From positions 1-55,401 of the forward strand of contig JAJFVK010000010.1 of NCBI GenBank assembly GCA_021371795.1: a stretch of DNA of 55,401 nt, read 5' to 3'. How positions within the stretch are numbered: the stretch's first letter is position 1; every line of letters starts with the position of its first letter. The DNA comes from Planctomycetaceae bacterium. GTDB taxonomy: Bacteria > Planctomycetota > Phycisphaerae > Sedimentisphaerales > UBA12454. A program made the position numbers and the translations under genes. Below, piece by piece: positions 6,633 through 11,976 of this stretch. The notes under the pieces are model-generated. The model was not told the origin of the DNA, ran no database searches, and was given only the letters and a program-made list of their open reading frames with translations.

Positions 6633-7835
6633 ATGTGGGAACAGATACAGGCAAATAAAAGAAATTCGCTGCTGCTGATAGTTTTGATGGCAGTTGTGCT
6701 CGGCGGTCTTGGCTGGCTAATTGGTATGTCGGTTTCGCCTGCGCCTTATTCTGGCGCGTTCGGGCTTGGCATCGCTCTTTGCGTTTGGATGATTCTGGCG
6801 ATGGTCAGCTTCTCCAGCGGCGACGCGATATTTCTGGCCGCCAGCAAAGCAGTGCCGGTAACAAAAGACGTGCATCCGCAGCTATTCAACGTTGTCGAAG
6901 AAATGGCAATCTCCGCACAGCTTCCTATGCCGAAGGTTTACATCATTAACGACCCCGCTCCGAATGCCTTTGCAACAGGCCGAAATCCGCAAAACGCATC
7001 GCTGGCTGTTACGGCAGGTTTACTCGGCAGGCTCAATCGCGACGAATTGCAGGGCGTCGTCGGGCACGAAATGAGTCATATTCTCAATCGCGATATTCTT
7101 TTCGTGACTGTCGCGGGCGTTATGCTCGGTGCGATAACGATAATTTCCGAAGTTTTTCTGCGAAGTATGTTTTACAGTTCGCTGGGCTCCAGCAGATACT
7201 CATCTCGCGGCAGAGGCAAAGGCGACGGCGGGCAGGCGATAATGATGATTATCGCGTTGGTCGCAGCAATTCTTGCTCCGATTATGGCGACGCTTTTATA
7301 TTTTGCTCTTTCACGAAGACGTGAATATTTGGCAGATGCGAGTGCGGCAAGATTGACACGCTATCCGGAAGGGCTTGCAAGTGCTCTTGAGAAAATTTCG
7401 CAAAATACCGTTCCGCTTGCTTCTGCCAATAAAGTAACCGCTCCGATGTATATCGTAAATCCTTTGCAGCAGGCGGGTATGAAACTTTCAGATTTGACCA
7501 GTACGCATCCGCCGATTTCAGAGCGTGTAAAAATTTTGCGGGGAATGTCGGGCGCATCTTTTGCGGATTATTCAGACGCATTTAAAAAAACAACGAGACA
7601 TTCGACTCCTATACCGTCGTCGTCTTTGAAGCAGGAAACTGTTGAGATTCGGCCGGCATCAGAGCAGGGGCCGGTATCGGCCAAAGGGCAGCACAGGAAT
7701 ATTGGCGATATAATGTTCAAGACTTCTGGATTTAAGTTCGTAAATTGCAACTGCGGATTAAGAATGAAAATTCCGCCGAATTTCAAAGCTGACACTGTGC
7801 AGTGTCCAAGATGCGGAACGACACATACGATTTAA
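6633..7835 (+). CDS. M48-family membrane metalloprotease, HtpX-like, with C-terminal zinc ribbon
   Basis: 400 residues. Two N-terminal membrane helices (about 14-34 and 42-64) precede the peptidase domain. The zinc motif is HEMSH (145-149) in GVVGHEMSHILNRD. Two further helices follow around 155-175 and 200-225, with the third-ligand region RREYLADASAARLT. This is the HtpX layout, a membrane protease for damaged membrane proteins. About 100 extra C-terminal residues end in a Cys-rich module (CNCG...CPRCGTTH). That resembles a rubredoxin-like zinc ribbon and is not part of E. coli HtpX. The ATG at 6633 follows an AT-rich stretch with no clear RBS. Pairing with lemA is typical. Confidence 0.92.
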   Translation: MWEQIQANKRNSLLLIVLMAVVLGGLGWLIGMSVSPAPYSGAFGLGIALCVWMILAMVSFSSGDAIFLAASKAVPVTKDVHPQLFNVVEEMAISAQLPMPKVYIINDPAPNAFATGRNPQNASLAVTAGLLGRLNRDELQGVVGHEMSHILNRDILFVTVAGVMLGAITIISEVFLRSMFYSSLGSSRYSSRGRGKGDGGQAIMMIIALVAAILAPIMATLLYFALSRRREYLADASAARLTRYPEGLASALEKISQNTVPLASANKVTAPMYIVNPLQQAGMKLSDLTSTHPPISERVKILRGMSGASFADYSDAFKKTTRHSTPIPSSSLKQETVEIRPASEQGPVSAKGQHRNIGDIMFKTSGFKFVNCNCGLRMKIPPNFKADTVQCPRCGTTHTI

Positions 7836-8046
7836 AATTTAAGGATACCTCTAATAATTCGTAAATCAGAGCCATGAGCGTTGAAGCGAAGCGTAAGCCC
7901 TCGTAGGGGGGGGATCCATAAGCGAAGTGGGGGGAGCGATTGGGTAGTAGTCGTTGCGTCATTGATAAGTACATCATTTAGGACAACGCGGTAATCTCAA
8001 CACTATGCTTCCAATATCACTTCACCATAAAAAAAGTTTTTTATAC

Positions 8047-8074
8047 TTGTATTTATACAATTTATTAATATACT
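8047..8074 (+). promoter_or_regulatory. Putative promoter with overlapping inverted repeat before nuclease-NTPase gene
   Basis: TTGTAT (8047-8052), a 16-base spacer and TATACT (8069-8074) form a plausible sigma70 promoter 41 bases before the ATG. The -35 box is one arm of a perfect inverted repeat, TTGTAT-TT-ATACAA (8047-8060), which could be an operator. Confidence 0.4.
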
Positions 8075-8114
8075 GTACTTGCCTTTTCAATACAATTTTG
8101 TGCGATGTATTTAG

Positions 8115-10625
8115 ATGTGTGAAATCCAAAAAAAAATAGAATCTTTTTTAGAATTGCAAAAATCAAAAAAGCCTTTTCATTCCGAAAATTGGACTGAGGC
8201 AGATACTAGATCGAAATTTATAGATACTCTTCTGATAAATTGTTTAGGGTGGTCAGAAGATAGTATTCGAAGAGAAGTTTCATCAAATGGATTGAGATTA
8301 GATTATCTTCTTTCTACAACTCGACCTGTAATTGTCGTTGAGGCAAAAAAGGCGGGAATTGAGTTTCCTATATTCCAAAATAAAAAAATACAAACTGTTA
8401 AATTAGATTCATATCAAAAAACAAATCCATCTCTAAAAGAACATATAAAACAAGTGGCACAGTATTGTTGGGACAGATCTGCTCCAATTGCGGTTCTTAC
8501 TAATGGTAAAACTTATATATTTTTTGTGGCAGTTAGAGGCGACGGAGTTCCATGGAACGAAGGTAAACTGATAATTATTCCCAATATTTTTGATGAAAGC
8601 ACTGATTTTGCGGATTTATACAATTTGTTATCAAAAGAAATTATTCTAACCGGTGGGTTATTATCACGTTTGCTTGTAGATGAAATTGCAATACGTCCCA
8701 AAAGTGTTTTAAGCACATATAATGACCCAAACATGACAATCCCAAGAAATCAATTGGGCTTGGCGTTAGAACCTCTATTGCTTCAGGTGTTTTCTGATGT
8801 AACAAAAGAAGATTCACCAGATGTTTTACAAAATTGCTACGTGTTACCAGGTGAAACACATCTTTATAAAGAGGAATTCGAAGCACTGCTTATAGATAGA
8901 CCGCCTAAATTTCCCGATACGGTGTTATCGCTTTGTTCTAAAAACAATTATGAAAAATTTCATGAATGTTTAAAAGATTATTTTTCCAGAAAAGACTGGG
9001 AACGAACGATATTTGTAATCGGCGGAGTTGGGGTTGGTAAAACAATGTTTTTAAGGAGATTTTTTGATTCACACATTAACAAAGACAATGTTTCTTCAAA
9101 AACAATAGCGTTCTATATCGATTTTAGGAAACCTGGGCTTGATCCTCAAAAAATAGAAAATTTTATCTATGAAAAATTATTTGATGCCATTATCGAACTA
9201 GATCAAAAACCAGTATCAGACGAAAATATTAAATTTGATTTTTCTTCTTATAATGGACTCCAACAGGTATTCTGGCCACAGATGAAATGGTTTTTAGGAG
9301 GCCCCGAAGGCCAATTGAAAGATATTGACCACAAGGAATATGAAAAAGCAAAGATAAATTTTCTGTCATCTCTCAGGGATAATAAAAAATTATTCGTAAA
9401 AGGCGCGTTCAGGGTTTTAAGAGAGAAGTACCATCAATATACTTGTGTTATCTTAGACAACGCAGACCAATGCAATGCTGATTATCAAAAAGCAATTTAC
9501 CTTTATTCTAGGACGTTAGAGTCCTATTTAAAGTGTTTGATTATTGTTGCATTAAGAGAGGAGTGGTATTGGCATTTTGGACAAGTTGGTGGCCCTCTAT
9601 CGGCATATCATGACACAGTCTACCATATTCCCGCCCCACGAGTCAGAAATGTTTTAGAAAAAAGGATTGATTATGCATTAGAATTGTTAGGGAAATATCA
9701 CATACCCAAAGCTTATGCTATTTTAGGTGAAAATTTAGAGTTAGAAGCCAAACACCTTATTAAATATCTCAGAATATTTAAAAGTGCTTTTATAAATAAC
9801 GATGACATAACTATTTTTTATGAATGTTTGAGCAATGGGAATGTTAGGCGAGGATTAGATGCCTTTTTGAATTTCTTACGTTCAGGGCATACACATGTCG
9901 ATGAATATTTGAAAGCTATAGTATCTGATGGTACATACGTTTTAAAATTTCATCAAGTATTTAAATCTATTAGCAGAGAAAGATACTTTTATTATTCTTC
10001 TAATCGTAGTATCATTCCAAATGTTTTCAGCCCAATAGATGGTGTTGATGGTTTGCAGTTGTCTTATTTTGTAAAAATTTATCTATTAAATTGTCTTGCT
10101 CAAGAATCTACGACCGATTCCCCACAGGGGCGCGGGTATGTGCCTATGACCCAAATAGATTATATCCTTGATAAATTAGGATTAACTCAAGATAATAGTA
10201 AGAAATTAATTACTAATCTTTTTGACAAAAGTTTAGTCGAGCCGGATGCGAAATTATCTTCAGATTTTGAGAGTTGGAAATATTTAAAAATCACAGCCTT
10301 TGGTCTATATGTAATTAAAAACATGACCCATAGATTCTCGTATCTTGAGGCAATCATGCTAGATACCCCAATAAAAAACATGGAAATCTTAACAAGAATA
10401 ACCGGGTTATATTTAGAAGGCGTAAAACCTTCATTACATCAAAGGCTTATATGTGTCCAAGACTTTTTGAAATATCTACAGAAAGAAGAAACTTTTGAAC
10501 AAATACGGATACAACAAGCTGGACTTGCGGGCAGATTTTCTGAATATATGCCAGTGCTGTGTACTCATATAAAGAACGAGATTGATGAACTAAAAGAAGA
10601 AATAAAACAAAATCCGTTTGTCTGA
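8115..10625 (+). CDS. PD-(D/E)XK nuclease-like domain fused to STAND/AAA-type P-loop NTPase; putative defence protein
   Basis: 836 residues, visibly AT-richer than its neighbours. Residues 20-140 resemble the type I restriction HsdR N-terminal fold. E28 is in WTEADTRSKFIDTLL, D63 in RLDYLL, and E76/K78 in VIVVEAKK, which together make a PD-(D/E)XK-like site. Residues 295-320 hold Walker A GGVGVGKT (303-310). Walker B is VILDNADQ (445-452), followed by a sensor-like IIVALREE (Arg481). The last 300 residues are helical with no motif I recognise. It is a single gene with no methylase or helicase beside it, so it is not a classical R-M system. N-terminal nuclease plus STAND-like NTPase is the architecture of Avs-type antiphage proteins. 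Defence function is inference. Confidence 0.75.
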   Translation: MCEIQKKIESFLELQKSKKPFHSENWTEADTRSKFIDTLLINCLGWSEDSIRREVSSNGLRLDYLLSTTRPVIVVEAKKAGIEFPIFQNKKIQTVKLDSYQKTNPSLKEHIKQVAQYCWDRSAPIAVLTNGKTYIFFVAVRGDGVPWNEGKLIIIPNIFDESTDFADLYNLLSKEIILTGGLLSRLLVDEIAIRPKSVLSTYNDPNMTIPRNQLGLALEPLLLQVFSDVTKEDSPDVLQNCYVLPGETHLYKEEFEALLIDRPPKFPDTVLSLCSKNNYEKFHECLKDYFSRKDWERTIFVIGGVGVGKTMFLRRFFDSHINKDNVSSKTIAFYIDFRKPGLDPQKIENFIYEKLFDAIIELDQKPVSDENIKFDFSSYNGLQQVFWPQMKWFLGGPEGQLKDIDHKEYEKAKINFLSSLRDNKKLFVKGAFRVLREKYHQYTCVILDNADQCNADYQKAIYLYSRTLESYLKCLIIVALREEWYWHFGQVGGPLSAYHDTVYHIPAPRVRNVLEKRIDYALELLGKYHIPKAYAILGENLELEAKHLIKYLRIFKSAFINNDDITIFYECLSNGNVRRGLDAFLNFLRSGHTHVDEYLKAIVSDGTYVLKFHQVFKSISRERYFYYSSNRSIIPNVFSPIDGVDGLQLSYFVKIYLLNCLAQESTTDSPQGRGYVPMTQIDYILDKLGLTQDNSKKLITNLFDKSLVEPDAKLSSDFESWKYLKITAFGLYVIKNMTHRFSYLEAIMLDTPIKNMEILTRITGLYLEGVKPSLHQRLICVQDFLKYLQKEETFEQIRIQQAGLAGRFSEYMPVLCTHIKNEIDELKEEIKQNPFV

Positions 10626-11334
10626 TAGTATTTATATTTTAATCTACTTAATATTTTTTTACCAAAACGTAAATAATCAGTTTCTTGCTCCTCAAAATTT
10701 ATTAGAAAATTTAAGGTGTCCGGTACATTTTTTGTCCGCCCCTGGCGGACAAGTCTTCAACCTTCTATCCGAGTTTCCGCCAGGCATTTACCCTGTGGCT
10801 AACAAATAAATCTTCGTGATACTTCTTTTCTTTGTGGTAAAAATTCGTGTCGATTCGTGGTTTCAATTTTTAAAACAAAAATCTCTGTGGCTTGGCGGTG
10901 AACGTAAAAAATCTGCATTATCTGCGAAATCAGCGATCAAATGAGGTCTTGAATTGTAACGTCTTTCCGTAAAATGTGTTAGTGATTGTGTTTAAAAAAT
11001 GCGCAAGCGGCATTTTCAGCTTTCCGTTATTTTGGTGTTTTTATTTGTTTTTAGTCAATTTTATATGCGATTGACTTTTATTTTGTTGATAACAGGCTGA
11101 AATAAAAATAGTTTTTTCACGAACTTGCGCGAAACAATCTGAACTTGCGCGGAATATGCACCAAATTCTTGCGCACAAATTACAAATCGGAGCTTTTTTA
11201 AGATTTTTGGTTTAATTTCGCGCAATTCAGACTTTTTGATAGCGTTTTTTGAGATGAAAAACGTGTCCACAATTCTGGAAAACGGCTGTAATTACGCCAT
11301 AGCGAAGTCGAATTATTGCAAATATTAAATTGTA
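10626..11334. other. Gene-poor repeat-rich spacer
   Basis: 709 bases with no supportable gene; short frames here lack domains. Content, left to right: an AT-rich tail, a 9-base-arm hairpin at 10732-10752, and a mosaic of words found elsewhere in the window (ATTCGTGGTTT near 10852, CTCTGTGG near 10884). From 10990 to 11230 there is an AT-rich tract with many GCGCAA/TTGCGC words, including GAACTTGCGCG twice exactly 20 bases apart (11121 and 11141). No terminator-like T-run follows the NTPase gene. Confidence 0.6.
10732..10752. repeat. Perfect hairpin TTGTCCGCC-CCT-GGCGGACAA
   Basis: Nine-base perfect arms around a three-base loop, preceded by a T-run and not followed by one. It therefore does not read as a terminator on the plus strand, and on the minus strand the stem runs into A residues. 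Probably a REP-like repeat unit. Confidence 0.5.
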
Positions 11335-11976
11335 TTACCTCATAACCCAATTCATTGCTTTATAAACCAGCGATGTGTTGCTGCGGAAATTCGGGTCGCC
11401 GCTGATTGAATAATCCAACTGCAAAGTCTTTCTTAAATAAATCTTTTCAGGATTGCCGTTCGGGTCTTTTTGTGTCGGATGCTCTATCACGACCGTTTCA
11501 TTGCTCAAGCCTGCGATGTACAGCGAAATGTTTTTTGCCTTCACATCGAAATCAGGCCAGATAATCACGAGGTCTTTTGTGTTGTCTTCGCCCTGAAGGA
11601 TTCTGTTTTCGGCAGTCTCAAGCGATGCAAGGAACGGGAATTTCTTTTTGTGTCTTGCTTTAATTTTGTCAAACACAACGTTTCTTGTATCTCTGTATGC
11701 CGGAATTATCTGGAACGTGTCGGTAACAAGCTCATTGGTCGGATAGAACGGCACATCGATGTTCGTATTGTTTGTCATCGTTAGAATCACATACCAGAAC
11801 CTTTGCGGTTTTCTTTCGCCGGGGATTTTTACGGTAATCTGCTGCGGCTGATTGTAAACGACGTTCAGCGTCCACTGGTTTGCGCCGGGTACGATTGCCG
11901 GTGCAGGTGCGCAAAAGCCGGTTAATGATGTGAAAAGTATGATTGCCGCTATGCTGAAAAATAATTTATGTTTCAT
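11335..11976 (-). CDS. Hypothetical secreted protein
   Basis: 213 residues starting with a clear signal peptide (MKHKLFFSIAAIILFTSLTGFCA, cleaved near residue 23). The mature part begins with Ala/Pro-rich residues. It continues with a beta-rich region containing FWYVILTMTNNTNIDVPFYP, which looks like an immunoglobulin-like or transglutaminase-adjacent fold, but I cannot assign a family. No lipobox, transmembrane helix or catalytic motif is visible. It stands alone, 49 bases downstream of the TIGR02757 gene on the same strand. AAGGC upstream is a weak ribosome site. Export to the periplasm is the only firm prediction. Confidence 0.75.
   Translation of the reverse strand: MKHKLFFSIAAIILFTSLTGFCAPAPAIVPGANQWTLNVVYNQPQQITVKIPGERKPQRFWYVILTMTNNTNIDVPFYPTNELVTDTFQIIPAYRDTRNVVFDKIKARHKKKFPFLASLETAENRILQGEDNTKDLVIIWPDFDVKAKNISLYIAGLSNETVVIEHPTQKDPNGNPEKIYLRKTLQLDYSISGDPNFRSNTSLVYKAMNWVMR

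What the first reader, a model, noticed from the sequence alone, without database searches (positions are those of the whole stretch)
8115..10625. Lone AT-rich nuclease-NTPase gene: candidate undescribed antiphage system
One 836-residue protein joins an HsdR-N/PD-(D/E)XK-like module (E28, D63, E76, K78) to a P-loop NTPase (GGVGVGKT, VILDNADQ, Arg481) and a C-terminal region with no motif I know. It differs in base composition from its surroundings, is bordered by repeat-rich spacers, and lacks modification or helicase partners. This matches the effector-NTPase-sensor logic of STAND defence proteins such as Avs, but the C-terminus does not look like a TPR sensor and the protein is shorter.
Basis: partly seen in the sequence, partly recalled or inferred. 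Interest (0 to 1): 0.75.

Follow-up and report, generated by a model that had tools for sequence, protein, structure and literature searches.

The report
Lone mobile nuclease-ATPase, likely phage defence
The gene encodes a single protein that joins a DNA-cutting domain to an ATP-driven ring-type motor; its relatives are scattered across bacteria and sit in prophage, plasmid and defence-gene neighbourhoods, so it is very probably an uncharacterised one-gene phage-defence system.

Summary
In detail: 8115-10625 (+) encodes an intact 836-aa protein, GC 0.33 against 0.44 around it. Residues 1-186 model as a PD-(D/E)XK domain closest to BpuSI and HsdR, with E28, D63, E76 and K78 conserved across 47 relatives. 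Residues 214-606 model as an ORC/Cdc6-type AAA+ ATPase, with Walker motifs, R517 and R578 (sensor-2-like) invariant and R481 variable. The rest is a winged helix plus a short helical tail. It is not an Avs-type STAND protein: there are no sensor repeats, and Cdc6, RdrA and BrxC fit better. The gene is a 3.5-kb insertion between htpX and a convergent ORF whose ends lie about 15 nt apart in four relatives. Relatives are sporadic (8 of 392 genomes of the phylum) yet span about ten phyla, and are AT-rich against their flanks in 52 of 54 loci. They have no conserved partner. They occupy the P2-prophage Q-A defence hotspot (two unrelated lineages) and the Rac prophage, and lie beside Tmn, SIR2-HerA and R-M genes. 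PADLOC 2023 has no model for it. Best reading: a mobile single-gene defence system in which ATP-dependent assembly on invading DNA licenses cutting. Defence is well supported by context; the mechanism is inferred and no activity was tested.

The parts
7836..11334 (.). Inserted segment between the convergent 3' ends of htpX (+) and the 213-aa ORF (-)
   Evidence: Collinear relatives G002, G009, G003 and G006 have the two gene ends within about 15 nt; G001 and G004 carry a different insert of about 1.2 kb
8115..10625 (+). Nuclease-AAA+-winged-helix gene, 836 aa
8115..8672 (+). PD-(D/E)XK nuclease domain, residues 1-186
   Evidence: AF2 model; BpuSI (3s1s) Z 11.3 over 146 residues, rmsd 3.6; weak HSDR_N_2/HSDR_N Pfam hits in 25 and 17 of 47 members
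8196..8198 (+). E28, nuclease active-site helix
   Evidence: E in all 44 rows with a residue there
8301..8303 (+). D63, metal-binding Asp
   Evidence: D in all 46 rows with a residue there
8340..8348 (+). E76-A77-K78, ExK catalytic motif
   Evidence: 47 of 47; also 12 of 12 in A1, whose members were found without any motif filter
8985..9629 (+). AAA+ core, residues 291-505
   Evidence: ORC/Cdc6 best folds; RdrA Z 12.1; BrxC Z 11.9
9021..9044 (+). Walker A, residues 303-310
   Evidence: G303, G306, G308, K309 in 47 of 47
9456..9467 (+). Walker B-like DNAD (448-451)
   Evidence: D448, N449, D451 in 47 of 47
9630..9932 (+). AAA+ lid, residues 506-606, with invariant R517 and R578 (GNVR/GDIR, sensor-2-like)
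   Evidence: R517 47/47, R578 46/46
10056..10295 (+). Winged-helix domain, residues 648-727
   Evidence: C-terminal model pLDDT 93; PolD/Rpa2 wH Z 7.7, archaeal MCM wH Z 7.3
10320..10622 (+). C-terminal helical tail, residues 736-836, the place left for a sensor; cold-shock domains are fused after it in two relatives
10928..11292 (.). Dispersed intergenic repeat (76% copies at C6:89060 and C3:149; 69% at C4:64105)
6633..7835 (+). htpX, left neighbour (housekeeping, not part of the system)
11335..11976 (-). 213-aa ORF, right neighbour (conserved in relatives, not part of the system)

Best explanation
It is a horizontally acquired, single-gene antiphage (anti-invader) restriction system. Shown or strongly supported: an intact PD-(D/E)XK DNase fold, an intact ORC/Cdc6-type AAA+ ATPase followed by a winged helix, mobility, and residence in defence hotspots. 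Inferred: the AAA+-winged-helix part binds invader DNA or a replication intermediate and assembles on it in an ATP-dependent way. Assembly brings the N-terminal nucleases together and licenses cutting, of the invader and perhaps of any DNA nearby. Because no methyltransferase travels with it, host DNA must be spared by the trigger (structure, modification or replication state of the invading DNA) and not by a self mark, so it would act like a type IV enzyme with motor and nuclease in one chain.
For: Catalytic quartet, Walker motifs, R517 and R578 invariant across highly diverged relatives, and the nuclease is the most conserved domain. AF2 pLDDT 83, with ORC/Cdc6 Z up to 13.5, RdrA Z 12.1, BrxC Z 11.9 and nuclease/BpuSI Z 11.3; winged helix. 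Two separate C-terminal cold-shock-domain fusions point to nucleic-acid binding at that end. No conserved neighbour family. P2 Q-A hotspot in several prophages with two lineages only 20% identical, the locus reported to hold anti-phage genes (PMC9122126). Rac prophage in the three inspected of the 8 (of 5426) E. coli genomes that carry it. Neighbours Tmn, SIR2-HerA, PDC-S06 and R-M. AT-richness in 52 of 54 loci. Insertion into a site that is tight in four relatives. Patchy distribution, 8 of 392, and a gene tree that mixes families and phyla.
Against: No activity of any member has been measured. The AAA+ arginine finger expected at strand 5 is not clearly conserved (aligned 489: K/R in 33 of 47, G here), so ring assembly is uncertain. 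In this genome itself the gene sits among housekeeping genes, with no other defence gene beside it. The distant control genes in the same loci also hit some defence models, so local enrichment is not sharply quantified. ORC-like folds also serve transposition and replication.
Confidence: 0.62

Rival explanations
1. A STAND/NLR-like abortive-infection switch: the NTPase is held off in a monomer, the C-terminal tail binds a phage protein, the protein oligomerises and the nuclease destroys all DNA in the cell.
For: Nuclease-NTPase-C-terminal order; Apaf-1, CED-4 and NRC2 appear among Foldseek hits; NACHT and nSTAND5 weak Pfam hits in some members; no clear arginine finger; no self-marking partner.
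Against: No repeat superstructure: about 100 helical residues after the winged helix. ORC/Cdc6, RdrA and BrxC lead the structural matches. Invariant sensor-2-like R578. Cold-shock fusions suggest a nucleic-acid rather than a protein ligand.
Confidence: 0.2
2. A modification-dependent (type IV) restriction enzyme that specifically cuts modified phage DNA, like McrBC but with motor and nuclease in one chain.
For: AAA+ plus PD-(D/E)XK with no methyltransferase partner; one public record already names a relative 'Predicted type IV restriction endonuclease'.
Against: No recognisable modified-base reader (SRA, ASCH, EVE or similar) among the listed Pfam hits of the members scanned.
Confidence: 0.1
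3. Not a defence gene but a function of mobile elements themselves (maintenance, transposition targeting, or replication control), the ORC-like ATPase resembling TnsC/TniB.
For: TnsC among structural hits; integrases, recombinases and transposases near several plasmid copies.
Against: Present in unrelated element types (P2, Rac, plasmids, chromosomes) as swappable cargo; sits opposite in strand to the neighbouring phage genes in Rac; intact nuclease active site throughout.
Confidence: 0.08

Closest known systems
BREX BrxC and the DUF499 ATPases (ORC/Cdc6-clade AAA+ with wHTH; PMC12839542)
   Same: ORC/Cdc6-type AAA+ core followed by a winged helix, in defence loci; structural match Z 11.9 over 363 residues
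   Different: BrxC is 1200-1300 aa with coiled coils and works with PglX, PglZ, BrxA and BrxB; here a nuclease is fused N-terminally and no partners exist
RADAR RdrA (PMC9994260)
   Same: AAA+ of the Cdc6 type with Walker A/B and a sensor-2 Arg; similar size; Z 12.1 over 304 residues
   Different: RdrA has no nuclease, has a large helical C-terminus and acts with the deaminase RdrB
BpuSI_N or Mrr nuclease-STAND proteins of the P4-satellite hotspot, and Avs (PMC9122126)
   Same: N-terminal nuclease (BpuSI-like) fused to a signalling NTPase, phage-satellite cargo
   Different: Those have C-terminal repeats; this family has a winged helix and a short tail and an ORC-like ATPase
REase fusions with CR-ATPases and the ORC/Cdc6 effectors of conflict systems (PMC12839542, PMC10853773)
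   Same: PD-(D/E)XK nuclease plus ORC/Cdc6 clade NTPase in mobile neighbourhoods
   Different: CR-type effectors and their prokaryotic relatives carry the REase C-terminally; HerA-linked versions have an inactive REase inserted between ATPase and wHTH; here an apparently active HsdR/BpuSI-like REase is N-terminal
Type I restriction subunit HsdR / type IIG BpuSI
   Same: N-terminal nuclease fold and E-D-ExK site
   Different: No SF2 helicase motor, no methyltransferase or specificity domain
PICI 'HsdR-like' defence protein (recalled from memory, Fillol-Salom et al. 2022; paper not held)
   Same: Possibly the same kind of single nuclease-ATPase cargo
   Different: Not comparable here; a lead only

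Membership tests
PD-(D/E)XK nuclease, HsdR_N/BpuSI_N type | Restriction-endonuclease-like fold | tested here: met
   AF2 model residues 9-186 on BpuSI Z 11.3, 146 aligned, rmsd 3.6; HsdR fragment 3h1t also listed
PD-(D/E)XK nuclease, HsdR_N/BpuSI_N type | Catalytic E..D..ExK residues | tested here: met
   E28, D63, E76, K78 invariant in 47 rows where present, and in 12 of 12 of a set not chosen by motif
PD-(D/E)XK nuclease, HsdR_N/BpuSI_N type | DNA cleavage activity | not testable with these tools
   Needs purified protein
ORC/Cdc6-clade AAA+ ATPase | AAA+ core with helical lid and following winged helix | tested here: met
   Best Foldseek and VIA hits are Cdc6/ORC, Z up to 13.5; winged helix
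ORC/Cdc6-clade AAA+ ATPase | Walker A, Walker B, sensor-2 Arg | tested here: met
   Invariant GxxGxGK, DNxD, R578 in GDIR/GNVR; the sensor-2 role of R578 is assigned from its position
[quoted passage not shown]
   No invariant basic residue there; aligned 489 is K/R in 33 of 47, G in this protein
STAND NTPase / Avs | C-terminal superstructure-forming repeats (TPR etc.) | tested here: not met
   C-terminus is a winged helix plus about 100 helical residues in a pLDDT 93 model
STAND NTPase / Avs | STAND-clade NTPase domain | tested here: inconclusive
   Weak nSTAND/NACHT hits below cut-offs; Apaf-1 and CED-4 hits appear among ORC hits
STAND NTPase / Avs | Match to PADLOC models of Avs proteins | tested here: not met
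   PADLOC hits on members are weak and lie on the P-loop region (mad8, mad3) or the nuclease domain; no Avs model is among those listed
Type I restriction (HsdR) | SF2 translocase domain and HsdM/HsdS partners | tested here: not met
   No helicase domain; no conserved partner gene
BREX (BrxC) / RADAR (RdrA) | Partner genes PglZ/PglX or RdrB | tested here: not met
   No partner-like recurrent neighbour family; the window flanks are HtpX, LemA-like and DUF2400
Type IV modification-dependent restriction (McrBC-like) | Restriction of modified DNA | not testable with these tools
   Needs phage assays
CR-ATPase / ORC-REase conflict effectors | ORC/Cdc6 NTPase fused to an REase | tested here: inconclusive
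   Both domains are present, but REase N-terminal here versus C-terminal in the description (PMC10853773); no sequences of that family were compared

The most novel reading that the evidence does not exclude
A widespread one-protein immune system of a mechanistic kind not yet tested: an ORC/Cdc6-like initiator turned DNA sensor, which loads onto invader or replication-intermediate DNA through its winged helix and tail and, on ATP-dependent assembly, switches on a built-in HsdR-type nuclease, sparing host DNA without any modification partner.
Probability: 0.35. Interest if true: 0.72.

Novelty: new variant of a known kind. Interest (0 to 1): 0.55.

Why it matters
Known defence ATPases of the ORC/Cdc6 type (BrxC, RdrA, SspC) work with partner proteins, which makes their sensing step hard to dissect. 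A compact single-chain version with its own nuclease would show directly how such a motor recognises invader DNA and licenses cutting without a self-marking methyltransferase. The family occurs in about ten phyla, on plasmids and in E. coli prophages, so it is easy to test in laboratory strains and may matter for which phages and plasmids these hosts accept.

Tried and rejected
Searches of PDB sequences, phage genomes (annotated collection) and a single-protein scan of viral contigs gave no match. NCBIfam gave only sub-threshold, scattered hits (HinfI, ZapE), treated as chance. PADLOC 'mad8' hits in 30 members were examined and rejected as a family link because the best-scoring stretches cover little more than the P-loop region. 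Alignments of relatives were too diverse for a genome scan, and a 4-sequence alignment was used; one scan pattern contains the EAKK motif, so the invariance of E76-K78 in those loci is partly built in, which is why the unfiltered set is also quoted. The idea that the dispersed right-hand repeat marks a mobile element with a transposase was checked: the nearest left-hand genes at two other copies are a beta-helix protein and MltA, not transposases. The control for defence-gene enrichment (genes at least 6 kb away) still held defence models (66 families in 120 genes against 161 in 120 and 147 in 92 near genes); these are family counts, not systems, so no significance is claimed. Literature searches did not find an experimental description of the family; supplementary tables could not be read. 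The C-terminal helical tail gave no match distinct from common winged-helix regulators.

Full report
OBSERVATION. The ORF at 8115-10625 (+) is present as described: 836 aa, ATG start, one stop. Its GC is 0.333; the rest of the window is 0.440. It is the only copy in its 2.85-Mb genome. Pfam, NCBIfam and PADLOC give only sub-threshold hits, mainly AAA_22, NACHT and HSDR_N_2, and no PDB sequence matches.

IT IS A REAL, CONSERVED FAMILY. tblastn finds relatives covering mostly 87-97% of the protein at 22-27% identity on plasmids of Klebsiella, Pantoea, Shewanella, Paracoccus, Rhizobium and others. A scan of one genome per species returned 62 loci, among them Pseudomonadota, Bacteroidota, Acidobacteriota, Planctomycetota, Cyanobacteriota, Actinomycetota, Bacillota, Thermodesulfobacteriota, Omnitrophota, Melainabacteria and a bin labelled archaeal. 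The closest relative (58-59%) is in a Phycisphaerae bin, L019, open for 580 residues only.

ACTIVE SITES. In 47 aligned relatives E76, A77, K78, G303, G306, G308, K309, D448, N449, D451 and R517 are invariant; E28, D63 and R578 are invariant wherever the position is present. Because some loci were found with a pattern that contains EAKK, the independent check is the first alignment of 12 (plasmid and phylum-search members, not motif-selected), where E28, D63, E76, K78, the Walker residues, R517 and R578 are also invariant. R481 varies. The nuclease is the most conserved domain: mean pairwise identity 34%, against 22-27% elsewhere. This is what selection on both a nuclease and an ATPase would leave.

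STRUCTURE. AlphaFold2 with the 47-row alignment gives mean pLDDT 83 and pTM 0.71. Against solved structures the middle part matches ORC/Cdc6 proteins best (Foldseek E 2.9e-6 to Cdc6; Z 13.5 to a Drosophila ORC-Cdc6 chain, 252 residues, rmsd 3.9), then RADAR RdrA (Z 12.1) and BREX BrxC (Z 11.9, 363 residues). The N-terminus matches the type IIG enzyme BpuSI (Z 11.3, 146 residues, rmsd 3.6) and an HsdR fragment. A separate model of residues 596-836 (pLDDT 93) shows a winged helix like those of Rpa2/PolD and archaeal MCM (Z 7.7 and 7.3) and a short helical tail. Z below 8 for so common a fold shows shape only.

WHAT THE C-TERMINUS MAY DO. There is no repeat sensor. In two relatives, L009 (Phaeobacter plasmid, two copies) and L059 (Rhizobiales), cold-shock nucleic-acid-binding domains are fused after the tail. 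This points to nucleic-acid binding at that end, by inference.

MOBILITY. Four relatives (G002, G009, G003, G006) have the block epimerase-LemA-HtpX-ORF-DUF2400 collinear, with the convergent ends of htpX and the 213-aa ORF about 15 nt apart. The window has 3.5 kb there, and two other relatives (G001, G004) have a different insert of about 1.2 kb. No same-genus genome searched has a full-length copy. In the phylum 8 of 392 genomes have one. In 52 of 54 loci the gene is more AT-rich than its surroundings, by 12 points on average (Wilcoxon p = 2e-10). The gene tree mixes families and phyla, for example Enterobacter with Pseudomonas, Jannaschia with Rhizobium, and Phycisphaerae with Desulfosarcina, although paralogy and binning are not excluded.

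DEFENCE CONTEXT. Six IMG/VR contigs carry the gene beside the P2 portal gene Q, and in four of them (L106, L108, L109, L114) the replication gene A lies on the other side. Rousset et al. describe exactly the gpA-gpQ interval as a hotspot for anti-phage genes, where P2 has old and tin (PMC9122126). Two lineages only 20% identical occupy it (L106-type and L108-type), so it has been filled independently. In E. coli 8 of 5426 genomes carry a full-length relative; the three inspected are in the Rac prophage, on the strand opposite to the neighbouring phage genes. A Klebsiella plasmid with phage-type genes also has one. Elsewhere neighbours include Tmn (7.6e-78), HerA with SIR2 among the near genes (1e-267 and 2.3e-162), PDC-S06, PD-Lambda-1, type I methyltransferase, AriA, RT-type genes, and a methyltransferase-REase pair. 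No neighbour family is conserved; the largest shared clusters occur in 11 and 10 loci at very varied distances, and in the annotated plasmids members of the second are recombinases. The distant-gene control also holds defence models, though fewer families.

MECHANISM. Shown: domain folds (predicted), conserved active sites, no obligate partner, mobility, hotspot residence. Inferred from ORC/Cdc6, BrxC and RdrA biology: ATP-dependent assembly, probably on DNA, that activates the nuclease. Host DNA would be spared by the nature of the trigger, since no methyltransferase travels with the gene. Ring formation is uncertain, because no clear strand-5 arginine finger is conserved.

COMPARISON. It works like a stand-alone restriction factor or a sensor-NTPase-effector protein, but it is not a member of Avs/STAND (no repeats), HsdR (no helicase, no partners), BREX or RADAR (no partners). 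Fusions of PD-(D/E)XK nucleases with ORC/Cdc6-type 'CR-ATPases' have been mentioned in comparative surveys (PMC12839542, PMC10853773), and BpuSI_N-STAND-repeat proteins in P4 satellites (PMC9122126). The domain theme is therefore known, while this N-terminal HsdR/BpuSI-type nuclease with a winged-helix C-terminus has no PADLOC 2023 model and no experimental description that I could find. I rate it a new variant of a known kind.

Noticed in passing
window 10928-11292; G000 C6:89060-89426, C4:64105-64548, C3:149-435: Intergenic dispersed repeat of about 365 nt with three other copies (69-76% identity) in the genome; nature unknown, no transposase in the nearest ORFs checked at two copies.
   Followed up: partly
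window 7836-7910: The left spacer holds short stretches (24-73 nt) matched at nine other places of the genome, like a dispersed small intergenic repeat.
   Followed up: partly
L096 2640-3932 and L097 2450-3600: At the same htpX-ORF junction two other relatives carry a different segment of about 1.2 kb, so the junction looks like a recurrent insertion point.
   Followed up: partly
L009 7977-10895; L059 9581-12817: Family members with C-terminal cold-shock domain fusions (two copies in L009), in a Phaeobacter plasmid and a Rhizobiales chromosome.
   Followed up: partly
L015, L067, L069, L072, L112, L019, L013 with L018: Several family copies are broken (frame breaks, or an N-terminal piece about 1.5 kb apart), as expected for an accessory gene that is lost when not selected.
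   Followed up: no
L056, L060-L063: An enterobacterial subgroup of roughly 970-1040 aa (L056 and L063 scanned) matches the KAP NTPase model above its cut-off (4e-9, 5e-7) and has a longer C-terminus with no Pfam domain.
   Followed up: no
L028, L033, L035-L038, L044: A subclade has T in place of R481 and groups Anabaena, Nocardioides and Rhizobiales/Methylobacterium; the functional meaning of the sensor-1 change is unknown.
   Followed up: no
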